DNA from: a virus
Virus record (IMG/VR): IMGVR_UViG_3300025914_000009
Location: 60,984-124,983 of that record
DNA: 64,000 nucleotides
Direction: 5' to 3' (one strand)
Every line of letters begins with the position of its first letter. Positions within the stretch are counted from its first letter, which is position 1. Below are positions 5,203 to 27,394 of the stretch, piece after piece. The notes below the pieces were generated by a model. It was not told where the DNA came from and did not search any database. It saw only the letters and a program-made list of their open reading frames with translations. Made by a program: the position numbers and the translations under genes.

Positions 5203-5751
5203 ATGGAATCATCCGATAAAGTAAAGGCGATTTATAATGTTACTGATACCCATATATATGGGTTCTTTAACGAATATAGGTACTTGTCCAACTTTCATTT
5301 ACATTCGATTGAATATGAAGGGATTCTGTATCCTTCGAATGAAAATGCTTACCAAGCAGCCAAGATTGACTATCAAGGGCATATGCAGCAAAAGTATCAA
5401 AGGATGAAGTTTGCTGAATTAACTCCAAGTCAAGCTAAAAGTGCTGGCCGCTCAGTGTCCTTAAGGGAAGACTGGTTACAAAAGATACCAAATGATCAGA
5501 TAGTATTTGATACATCTGGAGTCTTGATAGAGCAGGTAAGAGACAAGATAATGTATGACCTAAATGAAATCAAATTCTCCAATCCTCATCTCAGGAACCT
5601 TCTTCTGTCAACGGAGGATAAGTATCTTGAGGAAACCAATTGGTGGAGAGATGACTATTGGGGAGTACATAACGGTAAAGGTCTAAACAAACTTGGCAGA
5701 ATCCTGATGAAGATCAGAGATGAAGCTAAAGCTAAAAAGGAGGCAGCATGA
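5203..5751 (+). CDS. NADAR family protein (YbiA-like)
   Basis: 182 aa. Family signatures in order: GFFNEYRYLSNF (residues 20-31), YPSNENAYQAAK (43-54), KSAGRSV..REDW, LLSTEDKYLEE, DDYWG and GLNKLGRILMKIR. NADAR proteins bind and cleave ADP-ribose-linked substrates: YbiA/RibX-type act on riboflavin intermediates, and others remove ADP-ribose from DNA guanine in toxin-antitoxin systems. The glutamate in SNENAYQ is the expected catalytic residue. Coupled by ATGA to 5748. In this NAD-gene-rich phage a role in reversing host ADP-ribosylation is plausible, but not shown. Confidence 0.88.
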   Translation: MESSDKVKAIYNVTDTHIYGFFNEYRYLSNFHLHSIEYEGILYPSNENAYQAAKIDYQGHMQQKYQRMKFAELTPSQAKSAGRSVSLREDWLQKIPNDQIVFDTSGVLIEQVRDKIMYDLNEIKFSNPHLRNLLLSTEDKYLEETNWWRDDYWGVHNGKGLNKLGRILMKIRDEAKAKKEAA

Positions 5752-6923: not shown

Positions 6924-7499
6924 CTATCTGTAGAATCTGGACATATCCCTTTGTTTGGGAGATGACTGATAAGTACAAGATTCTCCATGATAGGTAAATG
7001 TGTAGCCTTTTGCAGATTTCCCTTTACCTGCAAGGATTCTATGAATAGTTGCTATGTGAAGAGAAAGTGCTTTGGCACAAGTCTTCATAGTTGGAAAAGT
7101 GGCAAAGAGAGACAAATCATGAATAAGATAAACATCAACTGACTTTACTCTTTTATGATGAGCTTCTCTGATCTTTTCGGCAGTTTTCTGAGAGCACTGA
7201 AAGTTTTCACCATTTGGTTCATAAATGTTGTAACCATATTCAGGAAGGTGAGAATTATGTTGTGAAATATAATAGACTTCTCTGGCTATCCTGTTCTCAA
7301 AAGTGCATTCTTCAAGTACATAGAAAGAAAATTTGTCTTTTCCATACTTGTTATAAGAACTTTGAAGATGGATAGAAAAATGGGTACCTTTACTCAACTG
7401 ACGAAAATGTGAATACTTTCTAGTCTTTGGAGATTTTGTAGAACCTATATAAACCTTATTGTTAACCAGGTTCTTTATTGCATATATGTAAGCTTTCAT
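6924..7499 (-). CDS. GIY-YIG homing endonuclease with NUMOD-type domain
   Basis: 191 aa, the only minus-strand gene in the left 47 kb. The N-terminus is a GIY-YIG nuclease domain (YIYAIKN..YIGST, with a conserved R-x-x-x-H stretch and NKYG). The C-terminal half (VYLIHDLSLFATFPTMKTCA then helix and KGYTF) is a NUMOD1/helix-turn-helix DNA-binding module. No intron is visible, so this is a free-standing homing endonuclease that has inserted between 6920 and the Ro60 gene; its orientation marks it as a recent mobile insertion. Confidence 0.88.
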   Translation of the reverse strand: MKAYIYAIKNLVNNKVYIGSTKSPKTRKYSHFRQLSKGTHFSIHLQSSYNKYGKDKFSFYVLEECTFENRIAREVYYISQHNSHLPEYGYNIYEPNGENFQCSQKTAEKIREAHHKRVKSVDVYLIHDLSLFATFPTMKTCAKALSLHIATIHRILAGKGKSAKGYTFTYHGESCTYQSSPKQRDMSRFYR

Positions 7500-7514: not shown

Positions 7515-7564
7515 ATTTGACAGCAAAAAACCAAATATTTCGACAAGATGTTTGACAGCAAAAA
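7515..7564 (+). promoter_or_regulatory. duplicated TTTGACAGCAAAAA motif at the Ro60 start
   Basis: The 14-mer TTTGACAGCAAAAA occurs at 7516-7529 and again at 7551-7564, straddling the Ro60 start codon at 7548. It contains ACAGCAAA, the constant motif of the nine RNA units downstream. The first copy lies in a small hairpin (ATTTG 7515-7519 with CAAAT 7532-7536). I infer an RNA-level binding site, perhaps for autoregulation by Ro60. The TTGACA part could instead be a promoter hexamer. Confidence 0.4.
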
Positions 7565-9254
7565 GACACAGTTATTCTCCATGCCGGAGAAGAAGAAAAC
7601 GACATCTGACTCACCATTTGTGCAAGCAGGTCTCAAAAAGAAAGCTCAAGTCCTATCAGGAAATGGAGCTATCAAGTATTCTACAACAGGGAATGCTTTT
7701 GTAGACCAGTTTGGTAAGATGGGAGAGTACAAAAAGCCCAGATCTTTCTCTGATATAGAAAAAGATTGCGAAGCTCTATGGGCAATTGATCCTTTGAGGG
7801 CAATCAAGATGAGCTTTTACATACGTACAATTACCAGACCTACCGACTTATTAGGAAAAACTACTTCCATTACCCAGAGGGGTGCTGAGCTTAAGCATGA
7901 GGGTATAATGAGGCTTATATGGTTGGCTACTAAAGATCAGCAAGCTTTCATAAAGAATCTATGGGTTCTTCCAGTCCTCGGATCATGGAAAGATATTATT
8001 ACAATGCTTCAGTATGATCTTGTATATCATGGATGGGGAGGTAGAGTTTTACCATGGGTAAGATTTGGTGATCTACTATTATCTGCCCTTGGGGATAAGA
8101 ATACTTGTGAACTGGTAAAGAAATACATACCTAGTATCAAGACCAATTCAAAATGTACTACTGTAGAAGCACAGGCTGATACCATGATTGCCAAATGGCT
8201 TTGCGGACTTCTATATCCTGAATATGTAGATAGTCCTGATGAGGTGCATGGTAAGTTTCATAAAAAGTACAGGAAGATGAAAACCTCAGGTACTGCTCAT
8301 GAATGGCAAAAGCTTATTTCTCAGAAGAAATTCGATAGAATAGACTTTGGTAAGATTCATGGGCGTGCTTTATCACTCCTTGTAAGGAGTAAATTCCTGA
8401 AGCGTCAAGGCTTACAGGATAAATATGCGGCATGGGTTAAGAAGCCTACTACAGAGGTTAAATACACAGGATATGTCCATGAGCTGTTCTCAGAACTCTT
8501 CCGAGGAAGTATGAGTGCAAAATACCCAACCTTGGCAAGTGTTCCAGAACATATGAGAGATACTATCAACAAACAGTTTGTGACCCTGGTTAACAAAGGT
8601 AAATCAGAGGATCATACCACCTCTCTGATTGTTGTTAGAGATACCTCAGGCTCAATGATGTCCACAGCTACGGGCACTAACATGTCTTCCTATGGAATCT
8701 CAAAGGCATTAGGGTTATACTTTGCAGAGTTCTTGGAGGGCCCATTTGCAAACTCTTGGATAGAATTTAACAGCGGAGCCAAGATGCACCAATGGACAGG
8801 TAAGACCCCGATTGAAAAATGGTTCAATGACACAAGTTCTGTTGTGGGAGGTACTGATTTTCAATCAGTTGTGAAATTATTCTGCCAAATAAAGGCTCAG
8901 GGAGTTCCTGAATCTCAATTCCCCTCAGGGATTCTATGTATTTCGGATGGTGAGTTCAATCCTGCCATGGCAAGCAAGACCAATGTAGAAAGCATGCTAC
9001 TTACTCTAAGAAATGCTGGTTTCAGTGAGGATTATGTAAGTAACTTTGTTATTGTCTTCTGGAACATACCTAATCAGTATTATGGAGCCATGTCTAGAAC
9101 AAAGTTCGAAACATATGGAAGTATCTCAAATGTATTCTACTTTGGGAGTTATTCAGCCTCTATAGTAGCCTTCTTAACATCCAAAATTCGAACAGCTGCA
9201 GAGCTGGTAGATGTAGCTCTTGATCAGGAAGTATTAAACTTAGTAAAGCTTTAG
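7548..9254 (+). CDS. Ro60/TROVE-domain RNA-binding protein (Ro/SS-A homologue)
   Basis: 568 aa, the usual Ro60 length. Residues about 40-350 form the helical HEAT-like TROVE ring (DPLRAIKMSFYIRT, LPVLGSWKDI). From about 355 a vWA domain carries an intact MIDAS: DTSGS at 365-369, GGTDF, SDGEF. Ro60 rings clamp ends of misfolded RNA in the central hole and bind Y RNAs on the outer surface; bacterial Ro60 works with exonucleases in RNA decay. The stop codon lies at the start of the first Y-like RNA unit (9254), and eight more follow at 10.35 kb, so protein and RNA partners appear co-encoded. Confidence 0.92.
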   Translation: MFDSKKTQLFSMPEKKKTTSDSPFVQAGLKKKAQVLSGNGAIKYSTTGNAFVDQFGKMGEYKKPRSFSDIEKDCEALWAIDPLRAIKMSFYIRTITRPTDLLGKTTSITQRGAELKHEGIMRLIWLATKDQQAFIKNLWVLPVLGSWKDIITMLQYDLVYHGWGGRVLPWVRFGDLLLSALGDKNTCELVKKYIPSIKTNSKCTTVEAQADTMIAKWLCGLLYPEYVDSPDEVHGKFHKKYRKMKTSGTAHEWQKLISQKKFDRIDFGKIHGRALSLLVRSKFLKRQGLQDKYAAWVKKPTTEVKYTGYVHELFSELFRGSMSAKYPTLASVPEHMRDTINKQFVTLVNKGKSEDHTTSLIVVRDTSGSMMSTATGTNMSSYGISKALGLYFAEFLEGPFANSWIEFNSGAKMHQWTGKTPIEKWFNDTSSVVGGTDFQSVVKLFCQIKAQGVPESQFPSGILCISDGEFNPAMASKTNVESMLLTLRNAGFSEDYVSNFVIVFWNIPNQYYGAMSRTKFETYGSISNVFYFGSYSASIVAFLTSKIRTAAELVDVALDQEVLNLVKL

Positions 9255-9345
9255 GGGCAGCTACAGCAAACACTATATTATACAGATTAATGCTGAACAA
9301 AATCCTGAGTGTTCTGAAGTTTCCCAGACAGGTGAATGCTGTCCC
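9254..9345 (+). ncRNA. Y-like RNA unit 0, abutting the Ro60 stop codon
   Basis: GGGGCAGC (9254-9261) pairs with GCTGTCCC (9338-9345) with one G-U; it is followed directly by TACAGCAAA as in the main array. The 5' strand begins on the last base of the Ro60 stop codon. The interior is about 70 nt and I see no full tRNA-like domain in it. Position and motif tie it to the Ro60 gene. Confidence 0.6.
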
Positions 9346-9446
9346 GTATACTCTCTAAAAGCCTTTGGGTGAATGGATGGATTAAAAGGATTTAGAGGCA
9401 GGGGTGAAAATTGAGATCCCCTGTCTCTTTTTTTAAATTCTATATT

Positions 9447-10025
9447 ATGAAGCTATCTGAAAAGGGTAAAGATATCATTGAGGTCTTCATATTTAACATG
9501 AAATGGATCTTGCTTGCTTTCCTTATCAAATTAGGATGGGATCTTATGGTTCTAGCCTATTTTGTATACAGTCAGCCTGAACTCACTCAAGCCCAGCTGA
9601 TGCATTTCATTGAGGATGTGGATATTACAATGATTGCAATCCTTATAAAGATGATGATAGCAGGTGGTTATAACTCTTCTATATCCAAGAAACATGATTT
9701 TGATTCAGAGAATATTAGTAGTGGGCAGTTAAAGATTAAGATGGGTACATCTATCATAGGTATCTCTTCTGTTCATATGCTAAAAGTATTCATGGAGTCA
9801 GAGAATTTGACTGTGGAAGAAATATGGAAGAAAACTATTGTCCACTGTGCTTTTATTGTTGGAGGACTAGCACTATCTTTGATTGATTATTTACACTGTA
9901 AAACAGAATCTCATGAGACAATACCTACTTCTGGCTCTTTGCCTCATGTTAATAACATGGGGATGTCTGGAGAACACTCATTTCCACAGATACAAGAAAG
10001 CAAAGGTTTACACGGAGAGAAATGA
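9447..10025 (+). CDS. YqhA/UPF0114-like membrane protein
   Basis: 192 aa from the ATG at 9447 (a TTG at 9411 would add twelve residues in an A/T-rich leader). Hydrophobic segments at about 17-38, 55-75, 100-120 and 135-155. The stretch HFIEDVDITMIAILI and the later GQLKIKMGTSIIGISSVHMLKVF match the layout of the UPF0114 (YqhA) family (E-x-x-D then D-L-K-x-K). Inner membrane; family function unknown. Its C-terminal codons overlap the next gene in another frame. Confidence 0.6.
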   Translation: MKLSEKGKDIIEVFIFNMKWILLAFLIKLGWDLMVLAYFVYSQPELTQAQLMHFIEDVDITMIAILIKMMIAGGYNSSISKKHDFDSENISSGQLKIKMGTSIIGISSVHMLKVFMESENLTVEEIWKKTIVHCAFIVGGLALSLIDYLHCKTESHETIPTSGSLPHVNNMGMSGEHSFPQIQESKGLHGEK

Positions 10026-10341
10026 TGATGGATCAGTCTTTCTTTACTATTACATATTAGCTACCTCCAATAACTATGGAGGGTCAAGCTATTATTATTA
10101 CTCCAGTAGGACTGCTGTTACTACATTCTCCCCTGCGGGCTGGTCAAACTCATCAATTGACCCAGTGAGCAAATTTGAAAACCTCAAGGAGGAGGATAAG
10201 GAGGTTGATGTTGATCTTGATGAAGAAGTTAATGGAGATATGATGGAAGAGATGCAAGACGATCCTGATATTTCAGAGGTAGGAGATGACTCAGCAGGTG
10301 ATTCCTCTGGAGATTCATCAGGGGATGGTTCAGGTGACTAA
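9913..10341 (+). CDS. putative lipoprotein with acidic Ser/Gly/Asp tail
   Basis: Starting at the ATG at 9913, the protein begins with a lipoprotein signal (MRQYLLLALCLMLITWGC; Cys at 18). A Tyr/Ser-rich segment and a strongly acidic D/S/G repeat tail follow. The first 113 nt overlap the YqhA-like gene in the +1 frame, an arrangement reminiscent of embedded spanin lipoproteins, although the acidic tail is not spanin-like. Membrane-anchored, function unknown. Confidence 0.5.
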   Translation: MRQYLLLALCLMLITWGCLENTHFHRYKKAKVYTERNDDGSVFLYYYILATSNNYGGSSYYYYSSRTAVTTFSPAGWSNSSIDPVSKFENLKEEDKEVDVDLDEEVNGDMMEEMQDDPDISEVGDDSAGDSSGDSSGDGSGD

Positions 10342-10348
10342 TTTCAAA

Positions 10349-10407
10349 AGGGCACATACAGCAAACATTATAACAATTCACCTACATTTGAATTAAAAGT
10401 GTGCCCT
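10349..10407 (+). ncRNA. Y-like RNA unit 1 (minimal type)
   Basis: AGGGCACA (10349-10356) pairs with TGTGCCCT (10400-10407), 8 bp, followed by TACAGCAAA. At 59 nt it is the shortest form: closing stem, motif, A/T-rich loop with a weak TTCA/TGAA hairpin, and TTAAAAG before the 3' strand. GTTAA separates it from unit 2. Confidence 0.65.
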
Positions 10408-10411
10408 GTTA

Positions 10412-10531
10412 AGGTCTGCAACAGCAAATATATCCTTGTGGCACTGGGGGTCAGTGGTGGAAATCCACTCTGTGGGGAAACCCAAAGTAGCTTAGTACTT
10501 AGAGCACCAGTTGGAGAAAAAATGCAGACCT
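10412..10531 (+). ncRNA. Y-like RNA unit 2 with permuted tRNA-like domain
   Basis: Closing stem AGGTCTGCA/TGCAGACCT (9 bp), then ACAGCAAA. Inside, tRNA parts come in permuted order: anticodon-stem 3' strand ACTGG (10443-10447), variable GGGTC, T arm AGTGG-TGGAAAT-CCACT (10453-10469), acceptor 3' strand CTGTGGG, GAAA tetraloop (10477-10480), acceptor 5' strand CCCAAAG, TA, D arm (10490-10505), then CCAGT (10507-10511), which pairs with ACTGG. The acceptor stem is thus a capped hairpin, and the closing stem replaces the anticodon loop. One A-G mismatch in the acceptor. This is the clearest YrlA-like unit. Confidence 0.75.
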
Positions 10532-10535
10532 GTTA

Positions 10536-10649
10536 AGATACCTAACAGCAAACAATTTGATCCTCTTGTGGATTAGTAGCTTAATTGGTAAAGCGCCCAA
10601 TTGATAATTGGGAGATCCTAGTTCAATTCTAGGCTTTAAAGAGGTATCT
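10536..10649 (+). ncRNA. Y-like RNA unit 3 with tRNA-Ile(GAU)-like core
   Basis: Closing stem AGATACCT/AGGTATCT, then AACAGCAAA. The interior keeps normal tRNA order: D arm 10579-10594, anticodon arm CCCAA-TTGATAA-TTGGG (10596-10612; anticodon GAT), T arm CCTAG-TTCAATT-CTAGG (10617-10633). The expected acceptor strands (GGATTAG against CTTTAAA) do not pair, so the unit's own closing stem takes the acceptor position, with an extra ATCC/GGAT hairpin inserted before the D arm. A canonical aminoacylatable tRNA-Ile is unlikely. Confidence 0.65.
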
Positions 10650-10653
10650 GATA

Positions 10654-10842
10654 AGGGTTCTTACAGCAAATATTAGCAAATGGAAACCTTTGGTCGGAGG
10701 TTCAAATCCTCCCCTCCCAACCAGATTTGGTGTCACCCTAAGGTGTTCAGGACAGCCAAATCTGGTGACTAATCAACCTGACCATATCTGGTTGGGAGGT
10801 AGCTCAGTCTGGTTAGAGCAGAGGATGCAACAAAAGAACCCT
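10654..10842 (+). ncRNA. Y-like RNA unit 4: permuted tRNA with encoded CCA
   Basis: Closing stem AGGGTTCT/AGAACCCT, then TACAGCAAA. The 3' half of a tRNA comes first: T arm GGAGG-TTCAAAT-CCTCC (10696-10712), acceptor strand CCTCCCA (10713-10719), A73 and CCA (10721-10723). After a 69-nt hairpin-rich spacer comes the 5' half: TGGGAGG (10793-10799, perfect 7-bp match), TA, D arm GCTC..GAGC with GG in the loop, and GAGGA pairing partly with ACCTT (10686-10690). If the spacer were removed at CCA, a mature-looking acceptor end would result. Confidence 0.75.
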
Positions 10843-10846
10843 GATA

Positions 10847-10906
10847 AGGAGACTTACAGCAAAACAACTCAACTTTCAACCGTTTATTTGAAATAGAGAG
10901 TCTCCT
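10847..10906 (+). ncRNA. Y-like RNA unit 5 (minimal type)
   Basis: AGGAGACT/AGTCTCCT closes a 60-nt unit with TACAGCAAA directly after the 5' strand. The loop is A/T-rich with no stable inner domain. Same class as units 1 and 8. Confidence 0.65.
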
Positions 10907-10910
10907 GATA

Positions 10911-10999
10911 AAGTGCCACACAGCAAATATTAATTCTTTTTCAACAAAGACCGCCCCTGGATGGGAGGAAGCTAAAGAGGTTCGATTCCTCAGGCACTT
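10911..10999 (+). ncRNA. Y-like RNA unit 6 with T arm joined to the closing stem
   Basis: AAGTGCC (10911-10917) pairs perfectly with GGCACTT (10993-10999); CACAGCAAA follows the 5' strand. Directly before the 3' strand lies a T arm, AGAGG-TTCGATT-CCTCA (10976-10992), so here the closing stem is geometrically an acceptor stem stacked on the T arm as in a tRNA. The D-arm region is replaced by the motif and an A/T-rich stretch. Confidence 0.65.
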
Positions 11000-11003
11000 G
11001 ATA

Positions 11004-11150
11004 AGGTGAGCAGCAGCATTTAACTAAATAATGGCCCTAAGGTTGGGAAAACTGAAACAGTCATACCGATACTCTCATAGGTTAATACGAAAAGAGTAGT
11101 GTCAAAGGCCCCAAGGGGTACTGGCGGCTATACAAAGAATATGCTCATCT
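11004..11150 (+). ncRNA. Y-like RNA unit 7 (large, diverged motif)
   Basis: AGGTGAGCA/TGCTCATCT (9 bp with one G-U). The motif here reads GCAGCATTT, a variant of ACAGCAAA. The 130-nt interior has GGCC (11033 and 11107) and ACTG/CAGT (11052 and 11058) hairpin options but no tRNA-like loops that I can see. Confidence 0.55.
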
Positions 11151-11154
11151 GATA

Positions 11155-11214
11155 AGGTCACATACAGCAAAAAGCTAAAAGCAATCATCTTGTAAATGAT
11201 AAAAACTGTGACCT
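11155..11214 (+). ncRNA. Y-like RNA unit 8 (minimal type, last of array)
   Basis: AGGTCACA/TGTGACCT closes 60 nt with TACAGCAAA after the 5' strand and a small ATCAT/ATGAT hairpin inside. The trailing GATAAG is present but no further unit follows. Confidence 0.65.
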
Positions 11215-19851: not shown

Positions 19852-19952
19852 AGTCAGATAGCTCAGTTGGTTAGAGTACCTGCTAGGGCTTGATCGAAAG
19901 ATCAACGAAGCTGCCGCACAGGAGGTCAGGAGTTCGAATCTCCCTCTGACTT
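19852..19952 (+). tRNA. tRNA-like gene with hairpin insertion in the anticodon loop
   Basis: Acceptor AGTCAGA (19852-19858) with TCTGACT (19945-19951) is perfect; D arm GCTC..GAGT with GG; T arm AGGAG-TTCGAAT-CTCCC. Between CCTG (19879-19882) and CAGG (19919-19922) lie 36 nt instead of about 9, including a hairpin TTGATC-GAAA-GATCAA. If the extra 28 nt were removed the loop would read CTGCCGC (anticodon GCC). No CCA; ends 2 nt before a start codon. The motif TTTGACAGCGAAA, close to the Ro60-leader motif, lies upstream (19834-19846). Confidence 0.65.
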
Positions 19953-20212: not shown

Positions 20213-20270
20213 AGGGGGATAGCTCAGTGGTAGAGCATTCTTGTCGGAAGTTCGATTCTTCCTCCCCCTA
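20213..20270 (+). ncRNA. tRNA-like element lacking an anticodon arm
   Basis: AGGGGGA/TCCCCCT acceptor stem (perfect), TA, D arm GCTC-AGTGGTA-GAGC, A26, then only eight bases (TTCTTGTC) before the T arm GGAAG-TTCGATT-CTTCC, and ACA at the 3' end. The anticodon stem-loop is absent, so it cannot decode. It ends 2 nt before the DNA polymerase start codon. It could be a processing signal for RNase P/Z or a tRNA mimic. Confidence 0.65.
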
Positions 20271-25288: not shown

Positions 25289-25289
25289 T

Positions 25290-25469
25290 ATGACAAATCT
25301 CGAAAAAGCAACCAGAGCTACTATCCTGCAGTTTGCTCTTGATAATATAGGGGCTACAGAGCTAAATCCTGTCAAGCAGGCAAGAGATCTGGGAGAGGCC
25401 CTCGAAGTAGAAATGGATGATGGAGTAAAGAAGATAGTAACAATCAATGTAACAGATTCAGATGAGTGA
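25290..25469 (+). CDS. hypothetical protein, 59 aa
   Basis: MTNLEKATRATILQFALDNIG then KQARDLGEALEVEMDDG. Small, acidic, helical. Overlaps the helicase start by 8 nt, which supports coupled expression. Confidence 0.5.
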   Translation: MTNLEKATRATILQFALDNIGATELNPVKQARDLGEALEVEMDDGVKKIVTINVTDSDE

Positions 25470-26544
25470 TTTTGATGACTTAGCAGGAGAAGTTCAGAGT
25501 GGCATGGATGGTGCCAATGCTGGTGTACCAATGGGGTTTCAGAGGCTGAACAATCACATAAGTATCAGAAAATCAACTAAGTATTTAATAGGAGGCTACA
25601 CTGGTAGTGGCAAAACTGCTCTACTGGATGATGCCTTTGTGTTAAATCCACTAGATTGGTACATTAGGAATTATAGTACTACGAGAATAAGACTGAAGTT
25701 AGTTTACTTTTCTATGGAGAGAAGAAAGAACTTCAAGTTGGCTAAGTGGATTTCCAGAAAGATATTCATGGATCATGGAGTACTTATTCCTGTGACCAGG
25801 TTAATGGGTTGGTGCCCAAGGGATCAGAGGCTAACTCCTGATGAGCATGATCTGTTCCTAATGCACAGAGAGTATATTGAGGCTCTTATGGAAGTGATTA
25901 TCATGATGGATTACCCAGAGAATCCCACAGGGATAAGGAAGTACATGAGGGAATTATATCTGAGGCACGGTAGGGAGGAACAGGTTACAGAGCATAAAAG
26001 GATATATATACCAAATGATCCTAATTTGATTATCATGAAGATCAAAGATCACTCTGGTCTGATAAAGAAAGAGAGTGGTCTTGCTACTAAAAAAGATGTG
26101 ATAGATAAAGCATCTGAAGATGATCGAATGGAAAGGGATTATTATGGGGGTTCTATAGTAGAGGTTTCTCAGTTCAATAGAGATATCTCAAGTCCCCTAA
26201 GGCTCAAATCAGGTGATGTAGAGCCAATGCTTGAGGATTTTAAGGACACTGGAGCTACTCAGGAGGATTCAGATGTGGTTTTATCACTATTTGATCCTAT
26301 GAGATATAAGGTTCCAGACCCCTCAGGGTATGATCTATCCTTACTCCGCTCCAGAGATGGAATGAAGATGTATAGATCCTTAAAAATCCTGAAGAATTCC
26401 TATGGCTCAGATGATATTAGGATAGGTCTTGCATTCCAACCTGTTGTAGGCATGTTTAAGGAAATGCCAAAGATAGGAGATATGACTCCAGAAGTCTATG
26501 AAACTATTTTGAACAATACGTTCTTTTTACCAGAAAACAGATAA
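25462..26544 (+). CDS. DnaB-type (SF4) replicative helicase-like ATPase
   Basis: 360 aa. Walker A GGYTGSGKTAL (about residues 44-54), a Walker-B-like stretch before DHSGLI, and a VVEVSQFNRDI-type strand (SIVEVSQFNRDIS) typical of the RecA fold of SF4 helicases, where Gln and Asn sense the nucleotide. The N-terminal DnaB domain is absent, as in several phage enzymes. It would unwind DNA ahead of PolB and interact with the primase at 34759. Confidence 0.75.
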   Translation: MSDFDDLAGEVQSGMDGANAGVPMGFQRLNNHISIRKSTKYLIGGYTGSGKTALLDDAFVLNPLDWYIRNYSTTRIRLKLVYFSMERRKNFKLAKWISRKIFMDHGVLIPVTRLMGWCPRDQRLTPDEHDLFLMHREYIEALMEVIIMMDYPENPTGIRKYMRELYLRHGREEQVTEHKRIYIPNDPNLIIMKIKDHSGLIKKESGLATKKDVIDKASEDDRMERDYYGGSIVEVSQFNRDISSPLRLKSGDVEPMLEDFKDTGATQEDSDVVLSLFDPMRYKVPDPSGYDLSLLRSRDGMKMYRSLKILKNSYGSDDIRIGLAFQPVVGMFKEMPKIGDMTPEVYETILNNTFFLPENR

Positions 26545-26545
26545 T

Positions 26546-27394
26546 ATGATTAAAACCATCAATTTGAACACAGGAGAGGGATATACTAAAACCGTATTCC
26601 CTGATTCTCAGCCTCATATTCACGTAGATGTAGCTTTGGAAGAGTACCTGGCCAGAGTAATAGTGTCTCTGGACTCCCCAGCAAAACTTCTTGAGCTATG
26701 TATGATATCTAGTGCTTTAGATCATCATAAGACTATCTCAAAGAGTGAGCTCCACATTACCTACTTATTGGGTGCCAGATCTGATAGAAATCATGATCTT
26801 CCCTTAGGGAGCAGCTTTGGTCTGAAAGTGATAGCAGATATCATTAATTCCCTTGAGTTCTTGGATGTATATCTCTATGATCCTCATTCAGATGTAGCCC
26901 CTGCTTTAATCAAAGGTTCAATTGTGGTTAATAATAGGGAGCTGGTGGAGGCTTATGATAAAAAGGATACAATTCTTATTGTTCCTGATGCAGGTGCTTC
27001 CAAAAAGGCACACAAATATGCTGAGTGGAATCCAAATATTAAAGAATCCATACAGTGTATAAAGCATAGAGACCTTTCTAATGGTAAAATAACTCTTGAA
27101 GTTCTTAACCCTGCAACATGTGCTGGGAGGCATTGTGTGATTATTGATGATATCTGTGATGGGGGTGGAACTTTCATTGCTATTGCTAAGCAGCTTAGAG
27201 ATCAGGGATGGAATCCTCTTTCTATGACTCTCATAGTTACTCATGGGATTTTCTCCAAAGGATTTGAGCCACTGGAAGAGTATTTTGATGAGATAATATG
27301 CTCAGACTCACTAGGAGTATGGATACATACAGGTAAAGTCAAAATAAAACAAATAGCTTATGACCCAGACAAATATGGAATTAATGCAGGATGA
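26546..27394 (+). CDS. PRPP synthetase-like enzyme (Prs or Adps)
   Basis: 282 aa. The PRPP-binding loop CVIIDDICDGGGTF and a second strand ILIVPDAGASKKA match Prs, as does LLGARSDR. Prs adds pyrophosphate to ribose 5-phosphate. A phage branch, Adps of the NARP1 pathway, instead pyrophosphorylates ADP-ribose, giving ADPR-PP for a NAMPT-like partner to make NAD. That partner is present four genes downstream (28863). Prs and Adps cannot be separated by eye. Confidence 0.82.
   Translation: MIKTINLNTGEGYTKTVFPDSQPHIHVDVALEEYLARVIVSLDSPAKLLELCMISSALDHHKTISKSELHITYLLGARSDRNHDLPLGSSFGLKVIADIINSLEFLDVYLYDPHSDVAPALIKGSIVVNNRELVEAYDKKDTILIVPDAGASKKAHKYAEWNPNIKESIQCIKHRDLSNGKITLEVLNPATCAGRHCVIIDDICDGGGTFIAIAKQLRDQGWNPLSMTLIVTHGIFSKGFEPLEEYFDEIICSDSLGVWIHTGKVKIKQIAYDPDKYGINAG

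What the first reader, a model, noticed from the sequence alone, without database searches (positions are those of the whole stretch)
7515..11214. Phage Ro60 gene followed by nine tandem Y-like RNA units
The sequence shows a Ro60/TROVE gene, one RNA unit starting on its stop codon (9254-9345), and eight more units in a row (10349-11214). Every unit has a private 7-9 bp closing stem with different sequence, so pairing is preserved while bases change (GGGCACA, GGTCTGC, GATACCT, GGGTTCT, GGAGACT, AGTGCC, GGTGAG, GGTCACA). ACAGCAAA follows the 5' strand (variant GCAGCATTT in unit 7) and a GATAA or GTTAA spacer separates units. Known: Ro60 binds Y RNAs whose ends form the Ro-binding stem, and bacterial YrlA Y RNAs carry tRNA-like modules. 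A head-to-tail array of many Y-like RNAs with different payloads is, as far as I know, not described. I infer a set of interchangeable adaptors that tether phage Ro60 to different RNAs or enzymes.
Basis: partly seen in the sequence, partly recalled or inferred. Interest (0 to 1): 0.95.

Follow-up and report, generated by a model that had tools for sequence, protein, structure and literature searches.

The report
Phage Ro60 with tRNA-mimic RNA array
A phage gene for a Ro60-like RNA-binding protein sits beside a row of nine small RNAs that share one handle and carry different, mostly tRNA-like, pieces; the same protein-plus-RNA pairing occurs in many phages and some bacteria and resembles RNAs thought to exist only in social amoebae.

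Summary
Gene 7548-9254 encodes a DUF7788/DUF2828 protein (not Pfam TROVE) whose predicted fold best matches Ro60. Nine units (9254-9345; 10349-11214) each have a private closing stem, then ACAGCAA (one variant). A covariance model of this handle gives 140 sense and 1 antisense hits near viral DUF2828 genes, and 99 versus 4 near bacterial/archaeal ones not used to build it. Contigs chosen by the RNA pattern alone carry the gene in 15 of 17 cases with model hits, 1 of 33 without. The interiors are largely tRNA pieces: hairpins with anticodon-type loops (27 of 106 viral interiors against 0.6 in shuffles; 19 of 82 bacterial against 0.3), T-arms, permuted YrlA-like tRNAs, a tRNA body. The handle also resembles Dictyostelium Class I RNAs (best 39.7 bits, E=4e-4; gathering 41.5), reported as unique to social amoebae. 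I infer a Ro60-type RNP displaying interchangeable tRNA mimics, most likely decoys or adaptors for tRNA-recognising proteins such as anticodon nucleases. Binding, processing and function are untested. It differs from YrlA by its handle and anticodon-arm payloads: a new variant of Ro60/Y RNA systems.

The parts
7548..9254 (+). Ro60-like protein gene (DUF7788 vWA domain with invariant D365/S367/S369/T436/D467; N-terminal helical part DUF2828-like), 568 aa
   Evidence: Pfam DUF7788 40.1 bits over cut-off, DUF2828 21.8 bits below cut-off; invariant residues; AF2 model pLDDT 90.8; Foldseek best PDB hits are Ro60
7546..7607 (+). unit-like element overlapping the start codon of the Ro60-like gene; possible autoregulatory site
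   Evidence: R1 hit 20.3 bits, E 0.026; similar stem with the AUG inside it in L098 (exact motif) and L102, L108 (variant motifs)
9254..9345 (+). unit 0, stem GGGGCAGC/GCTGTCCC, starts on stop codon
   Evidence: R1 19.3 bits
10349..10407 (+). unit 1, stem AGGGCACAT/GTGTGCCCT
   Evidence: R1 40.5 bits (this unit was in the training set); fold z -3.2
10412..10531 (+). unit 2, stem AGGTCTGCA/TGCAGACCT; payload with D-arm-like and hairpin pieces in permuted order (read by eye)
10536..10649 (+). unit 3, stem AGATACCT/AGGTATCT; payload a tRNA body with Ile(GAU)-type anticodon loop
   Evidence: Rfam tRNA 10575-10635, 52.6 bits
10654..10842 (+). unit 4, stem AGGGTTCTT/AAGAACCCT; payload a circularly permuted tRNA (T-arm, acceptor, D-arm), YrlA-like
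   Evidence: Rfam YrlA positions 23-89, 31.9 bits, E 3.4e-4, below gathering 69
10847..10906 (+). unit 5, stem AGGAGACTT/GAGTCTCCT
   Evidence: R1 38.2 bits; Dicty_Class_I_RNA 24.7 bits; fold z -2.9
10911..10999 (+). unit 6, stem AAGTGCC/GGCACTT; payload ends in a T-arm abutting the closing stem
   Evidence: counterparts in L009 (7066) and L098 (7885) have anticodon-type hairpin plus T-arm
11004..11150 (+). unit 7, stem AGGTGAGC/GCTCATCT, variant motif GCAGCATTT; payload unidentified, shared in part with L098 unit at 7211
11155..11214 (+). unit 8, stem AGGTCACA/TGTGACCT; payload anticodon-type hairpin ATCAT-CTTGTAA-ATGAT (UGU)
   Evidence: R1 38.9 bits

Best explanation
A Ro60-type ribonucleoprotein system. 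Each small RNA has a constant handle (7-9 bp closing stem of free sequence, then ACAGCAA on the 5' side, usually A before and G after the stem) for the DUF2828/DUF7788 Ro60-like protein, and a variable payload. Most recognisable payloads are tRNA pieces: anticodon arm only, anticodon plus T-arm, permuted tRNA (as in YrlA), or nearly a whole tRNA. Private stems let tandem units fold independently. The RNP would present tRNA mimics to proteins that recognise parts of tRNA, most likely as decoys or adaptors against host tRNA-cleaving defence or tRNA-handling enzymes. Shown here: handle, covariation, strand- and gene-specific association, payload identity, predicted Ro60 fold. Inferred: binding, unit-length RNAs, decoy/adaptor role. 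Confidence is about 0.85 for the handle/protein pairing and about 0.35 for the decoy role; the figure below is for the whole.
For: Ro60 fold over full length. Handle model: 140 sense/1 antisense hits at viral DUF2828 loci; 99/4 at 65 bacterial/archaeal loci outside the training set, 94 within 1.5 kb upstream of the gene; reciprocal test 15/17 versus 1/33; in 119 genomes of one bacterial family, 6 of 10 with the gene but 6 of 109 without have a hit, and in the six the hits lie just upstream of the gene. Stem register fixed: outermost pair formed in 107/110, next position 34/110; linker-delimited ends, not chosen by pairing, give 15/19 fully paired 7-bp stems. Payloads: CTNNNAA loops 27/106 vs 0.6 shuffled, 19/82 vs 0.3 in the bacterial set; T-arm motif in 51/88 long units. 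In Listeria phage CKA15 the DUF2828 protein was found in purified particles (PMC12282133). PARIS AriB cleaves Lys(UUU), Thr(UGU), Asn(GUU), Thr(CGU) tRNAs in the anticodon arm (PMC12409363); UUU is the commonest loop here, 11 of 61, and these four make 18 of 61.
Against: No binding or RNA data for these units. The loops cover many anticodons, so no single nuclease explains them. Several payloads (units 0, 1, 5, 7) are not recognisably tRNA parts. Some DUF2828 phages (Vibrio nt-1, Campylobacter NCTC12673, Sinorhizobium phiM12) gave no handle hit near the gene.
Confidence: 0.6

Rival explanations
1. RYPER-like RNA-decay machine: the RNAs tether PNPase or another nuclease to the Ro60-like ring, as bacterial YrlA does, to degrade or check structured RNA.
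For: YrlA-like permuted tRNA payloads occur (L156 unit, YrlA 1-114, 50.3 bits; window unit 4; L224). Rsr-YrlA-PNPase is established (PMC8394870). The CKA15 authors proposed this for their phage (PMC12282133).
Against: Most short units carry anticodon-type arms or unrecognised payloads, not the YrlA module; one tether would not need nine different payloads.
Confidence: 0.2
2. Antisense small RNAs stabilised by a Ro60-like chaperone: payload loops pair with host or phage RNAs, and the handle only protects the ends.
For: Variable interiors, some without clear tRNA similarity.
Against: Enrichment specifically of 7-nt anticodon-type loops and T-arms is not expected of antisense RNAs.
Confidence: 0.1
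3. The elements are processing or regulatory signals of tRNA-rich operons and not RNAs bound by the neighbouring protein.
For: Many lie in phage tRNA clusters.
Against: T4 and T5 tRNA clusters, in records without DUF7788, have no convincing hit (17.0 and 14.7 bits); the association follows the DUF2828 gene also in bacteria.
Confidence: 0.08

Closest known systems
Bacterial Ro60 (Rsr) with YrlA Y RNAs (Rfam RF02553)
   Same: Ro60-fold protein; end-to-end stem; tRNA-mimicking module; in some units the same permuted T-arm/acceptor/D-arm module
   Different: Protein is DUF2828/DUF7788, not TROVE; YrlA consensus as printed has no ACAGCAA; many small units, often tandem; anticodon-arm and other payloads
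Dictyostelium Class I RNAs (Rfam RF01414)
   Same: Short end-joining stem of variable sequence, motif with ACAGCAA next to its 5' strand, variable rest, about 60 nt (PMC7919456); L098 unit 39.7 bits
   Different: Found in social amoebae only, own promoters, bound by RRM protein Rnp1A; scores stay below Rfam's 41.5; no DUF2828 partner reported in what I could read
Listeria phage CKA15 putative Y RNAs (PMC12282133)
   Same: Highly transcribed non-coding regions within 2 kb upstream of an Rsr-like gene; authors suggested Y RNAs
   Different: The one region given with coordinates (26,236-26,727) matches ROOL RNA (90.1 bits, gathering 99.1), not these units; the three handle units are at 25,289-25,553
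Phage tRNAs that evade tRNA-cleaving defence (T5 tRNAs versus PARIS)
   Same: Phage RNAs bearing anticodon arms of Lys(UUU), Thr(UGU), Asn(GUU)
   Different: Those are full tRNAs; here mostly isolated arms on a Ro60 handle

Membership tests
Ro60/TROVE protein family | TROVE domain (PF05731) by sequence | tested here: not met
   Window protein hits only DUF7788 and DUF2828 at E<=1e-3; no PF05731 in four related contigs
Ro60/TROVE protein family | Ro60 fold: helical-repeat ring plus vWA domain | tested here: met
   Best PDB hits of the predicted model are Ro60 1yvr, 9nfa, 2i91, 9nep, probability 1.0, whole length, TMq 0.42-0.45
DUF7788/DUF2828 family | Pfam models over cut-off | tested here: met
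   DUF7788 40.1 bits vs 27.1 (met); DUF2828 21.8 vs 29 in the window protein (not met on its own), but 88-130 bits in five other phage relatives
YrlA bacterial Y RNA | tRNA-mimic module (T-arm, acceptor, D-arm, permuted) | tested here: inconclusive
   Only unit 4 matches, 31.9 bits, below gathering 69; one relative unit 50.3 bits
YrlA bacterial Y RNA | YrlA Ro-binding stem | tested here: not met
   Unit 4 matches model positions 23-89 only
Dictyostelium Class I RNA | short closing stem plus adjacent ACAGCAA-containing motif | tested here: met
   against PMC7919456
Dictyostelium Class I RNA | Rfam gathering score 41.5 | tested here: not met
   Best window unit 24.7 bits; best relative 39.7
Y RNAs in general | bound by a Ro60 protein | not testable with these tools
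   Only genomic association is shown

The most novel reading that the evidence does not exclude
The phage and bacterial handle RNAs and the Dictyostelium Class I RNAs are one ancient class of RNA whose common partner is the DUF2828/DUF7788 Ro60-like protein, so that the amoebal RNAs, thought unique to social amoebae, would be eukaryotic members of a system now widespread in phages.
Probability: 0.4. Interest if true: 0.95.

Novelty: new variant of a known kind. Interest (0 to 1): 0.85.

Why it matters
It gives a partner RNA class to a widespread, uncharacterised protein family (681 records of the phage collection matched one member), extends Ro60/Y RNA biology to anticodon-arm displays, offers a testable phage answer to tRNA-cleaving immunity, and links phage RNAs to amoebal Class I RNAs of unclear function. 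Several carriers are cultured phages (Listeria P100, Staphylococcus SEP9, Mycobacterium CELFI), so it can be tested.

Tried and rejected
A single-protein search of viral contigs with the window protein found nothing; the profile was needed. A bias of the anticodon loops towards U36 was considered and not claimed: the CTNNNAA pattern itself favours such loops; with a looser pattern position 36 is U 31, A 18, G 10, C 2 of 61. The idea that the CKA15 transcribed region 26,236-26,727 is one of these units was dropped: it matches ROOL. Pair counts on alignment A4 (92.5% paired) are not independent evidence, since its units were chosen by pairing; the fixed register, the linker-delimited test, the strand asymmetry and the loci outside the training set are. 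Among the permuted control motifs one reached 88 stem-bearing occurrences, possibly a shifted form of the motif; not checked. Model hits in 6 of 109 genomes without the gene are unexplained. I ran no shuffled control for the RF01414 matches beyond Rfam's own E-values. No paper I could search describes DUF2828/DUF7788 with such RNAs, but the library lacks most subscription journals.

Full report
What is there. The window is part of a 125-kb virus contig. Gene 7548-9254 encodes 568 aa; the nearest named relative is in Leptolyngbya phage Lbo-JY46 (46% identity). Pfam gives DUF7788 over its cut-off and DUF2828 below it. An AlphaFold model on 46 relatives has mean pLDDT 90.8; its best PDB matches are Ro60 structures over the whole length, and its best matches among viral models are DUF7788/DUF2828 or vWA-domain proteins of phages and giant viruses. 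The D-x-S-x-S, T and D residues expected of a MIDAS metal site are invariant in alignment A2 (that such residues form a MIDAS is established knowledge of vWA domains).

The units. Nine units lie at 9254-9345 and 10349-11214. Eight have ACAGCAAA after the 5' strand, one GCAGCATTT. Tandem units are separated by GATA or GTTA. In the whole contig the handle model finds hits only here.

It is general. Leptolyngbya phage Lbo-JY46 has five such units directly after its gene, with similar linkers; Listeria P100 has three just before its gene. In 73 non-redundant loci, 133 stem-bearing ACAGCAA sites are on the sense strand and 11 on the antisense; the other permutations of the motif (104 distinct ones) average 13.5. 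A covariance model gives 140 sense and 1 antisense hits at viral loci, some of which trained it, and 99 sense versus 4 antisense at 65 bacterial/archaeal loci that did not: 50 loci have a sense hit and 94 hits lie within 1.5 kb upstream of the gene. Contigs picked by the DNA pattern GATAAGN6TACAGCAAA alone: 15 of 17 with model hits carry the gene, 1 of 33 without (a few of the 17 are near-duplicates or contigs also found by protein). In six bacterial genomes all seven hits at E<=0.01 lie at the gene (first-look candidates only partly scored). In 119 genomes of one family, 6 of 10 with DUF7788 and 6 of 109 without have hits.

The handle. The stem has a fixed register: pairs at -9 to -3 relative to the motif, with the next outer position usually an A/G mismatch. 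G follows the stem in 202 of 235 sense units and A precedes it in 171 (G was favoured in breaking ties between possible stems). Where linkers rather than pairing define the ends, 15 of 19 units pair at all seven positions.

The payloads. Among 106 short viral interiors, 27 hold a hairpin with loop CTNNNAA, against a mean of 0.6 and a maximum of 3 in shuffles; seven is the only strongly enriched loop length. In the bacterial set 19 of 82 do, against 0.3. Of 61 anticodon-type hairpins, UUU is the commonest (11), but many anticodons occur. Of 88 long units 51 contain a T-arm motif, 5 per kb against 0.08 on the opposite strand; 13 have T-arm then D-arm, as in YrlA, and 13 have the T-arm next to the closing stem. 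In the window, unit 8 carries a UGU-type arm, unit 3 a tRNA body, unit 4 a permuted tRNA, unit 6 a T-arm; units 0, 1, 5 and 7 are not recognised.

Comparison with known RNAs. YrlA matches concern mainly the tRNA-like module: window unit 4 (31.9 bits), L156 (50.3 bits). Class I RNA of Dictyostelium matches the handle: window units 21.9-24.7 bits, L098 39.7 bits at E=4e-4, L061 34.1 bits; its published anatomy is the same (PMC7919456). The scores are below Rfam's threshold, so common descent is open; convergence on a short motif is possible.

Function. Decoy or adaptor for tRNA-recognising proteins is my inference from the payloads and from what is known of anticodon nucleases and their evasion by phage tRNAs (PMC12409363). 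The main rival is a YrlA-like nuclease tether. In Listeria phage CKA15 the DUF2828 protein was detected in purified particles, though the authors caution that such detections may not mean true particle association (PMC12282133). In P100 a sigma-A-like promoter (TTGACA, TATCAT, 17-bp spacer, read by eye) stands just before the first unit.

Noticed in passing
window 7546-7607; also L098, L102, L108: A unit-like stem includes the AUG of the Ro60-like gene; the motif is exact in the window and L098, variant in L102 and L108. Possible autoregulation.
   Followed up: partly
window 20213-20270: A 58-nt tRNA-like gene with acceptor, D- and T-arms but no anticodon arm (Rfam tRNA, 49.7 bits).
   Followed up: no
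window 19852-19952: A tRNA-like gene whose anticodon loop is replaced by a longer insert (Rfam tRNA, 45.1 bits).
   Followed up: no
L104:3514-3599 and L071:3304-3454: Hatchet ribozymes above Rfam's threshold on contigs that carry a DUF2828-family gene.
   Followed up: no
L178:3696-4247 (-) and L010:2411-2962 (+): ROOL RNA, slightly below threshold, in Listeria phages between tRNA genes upstream of the DUF2828 gene; in CKA15 it coincides with a very highly transcribed region of unknown nature.
   Followed up: partly
window 11004-11150: Unit 7 payload of over 100 nt, partly shared with the L098 unit at 7211, matches no Rfam family.
   Followed up: no
window 5203-5751: NADAR-domain gene near the array.
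   Followed up: no
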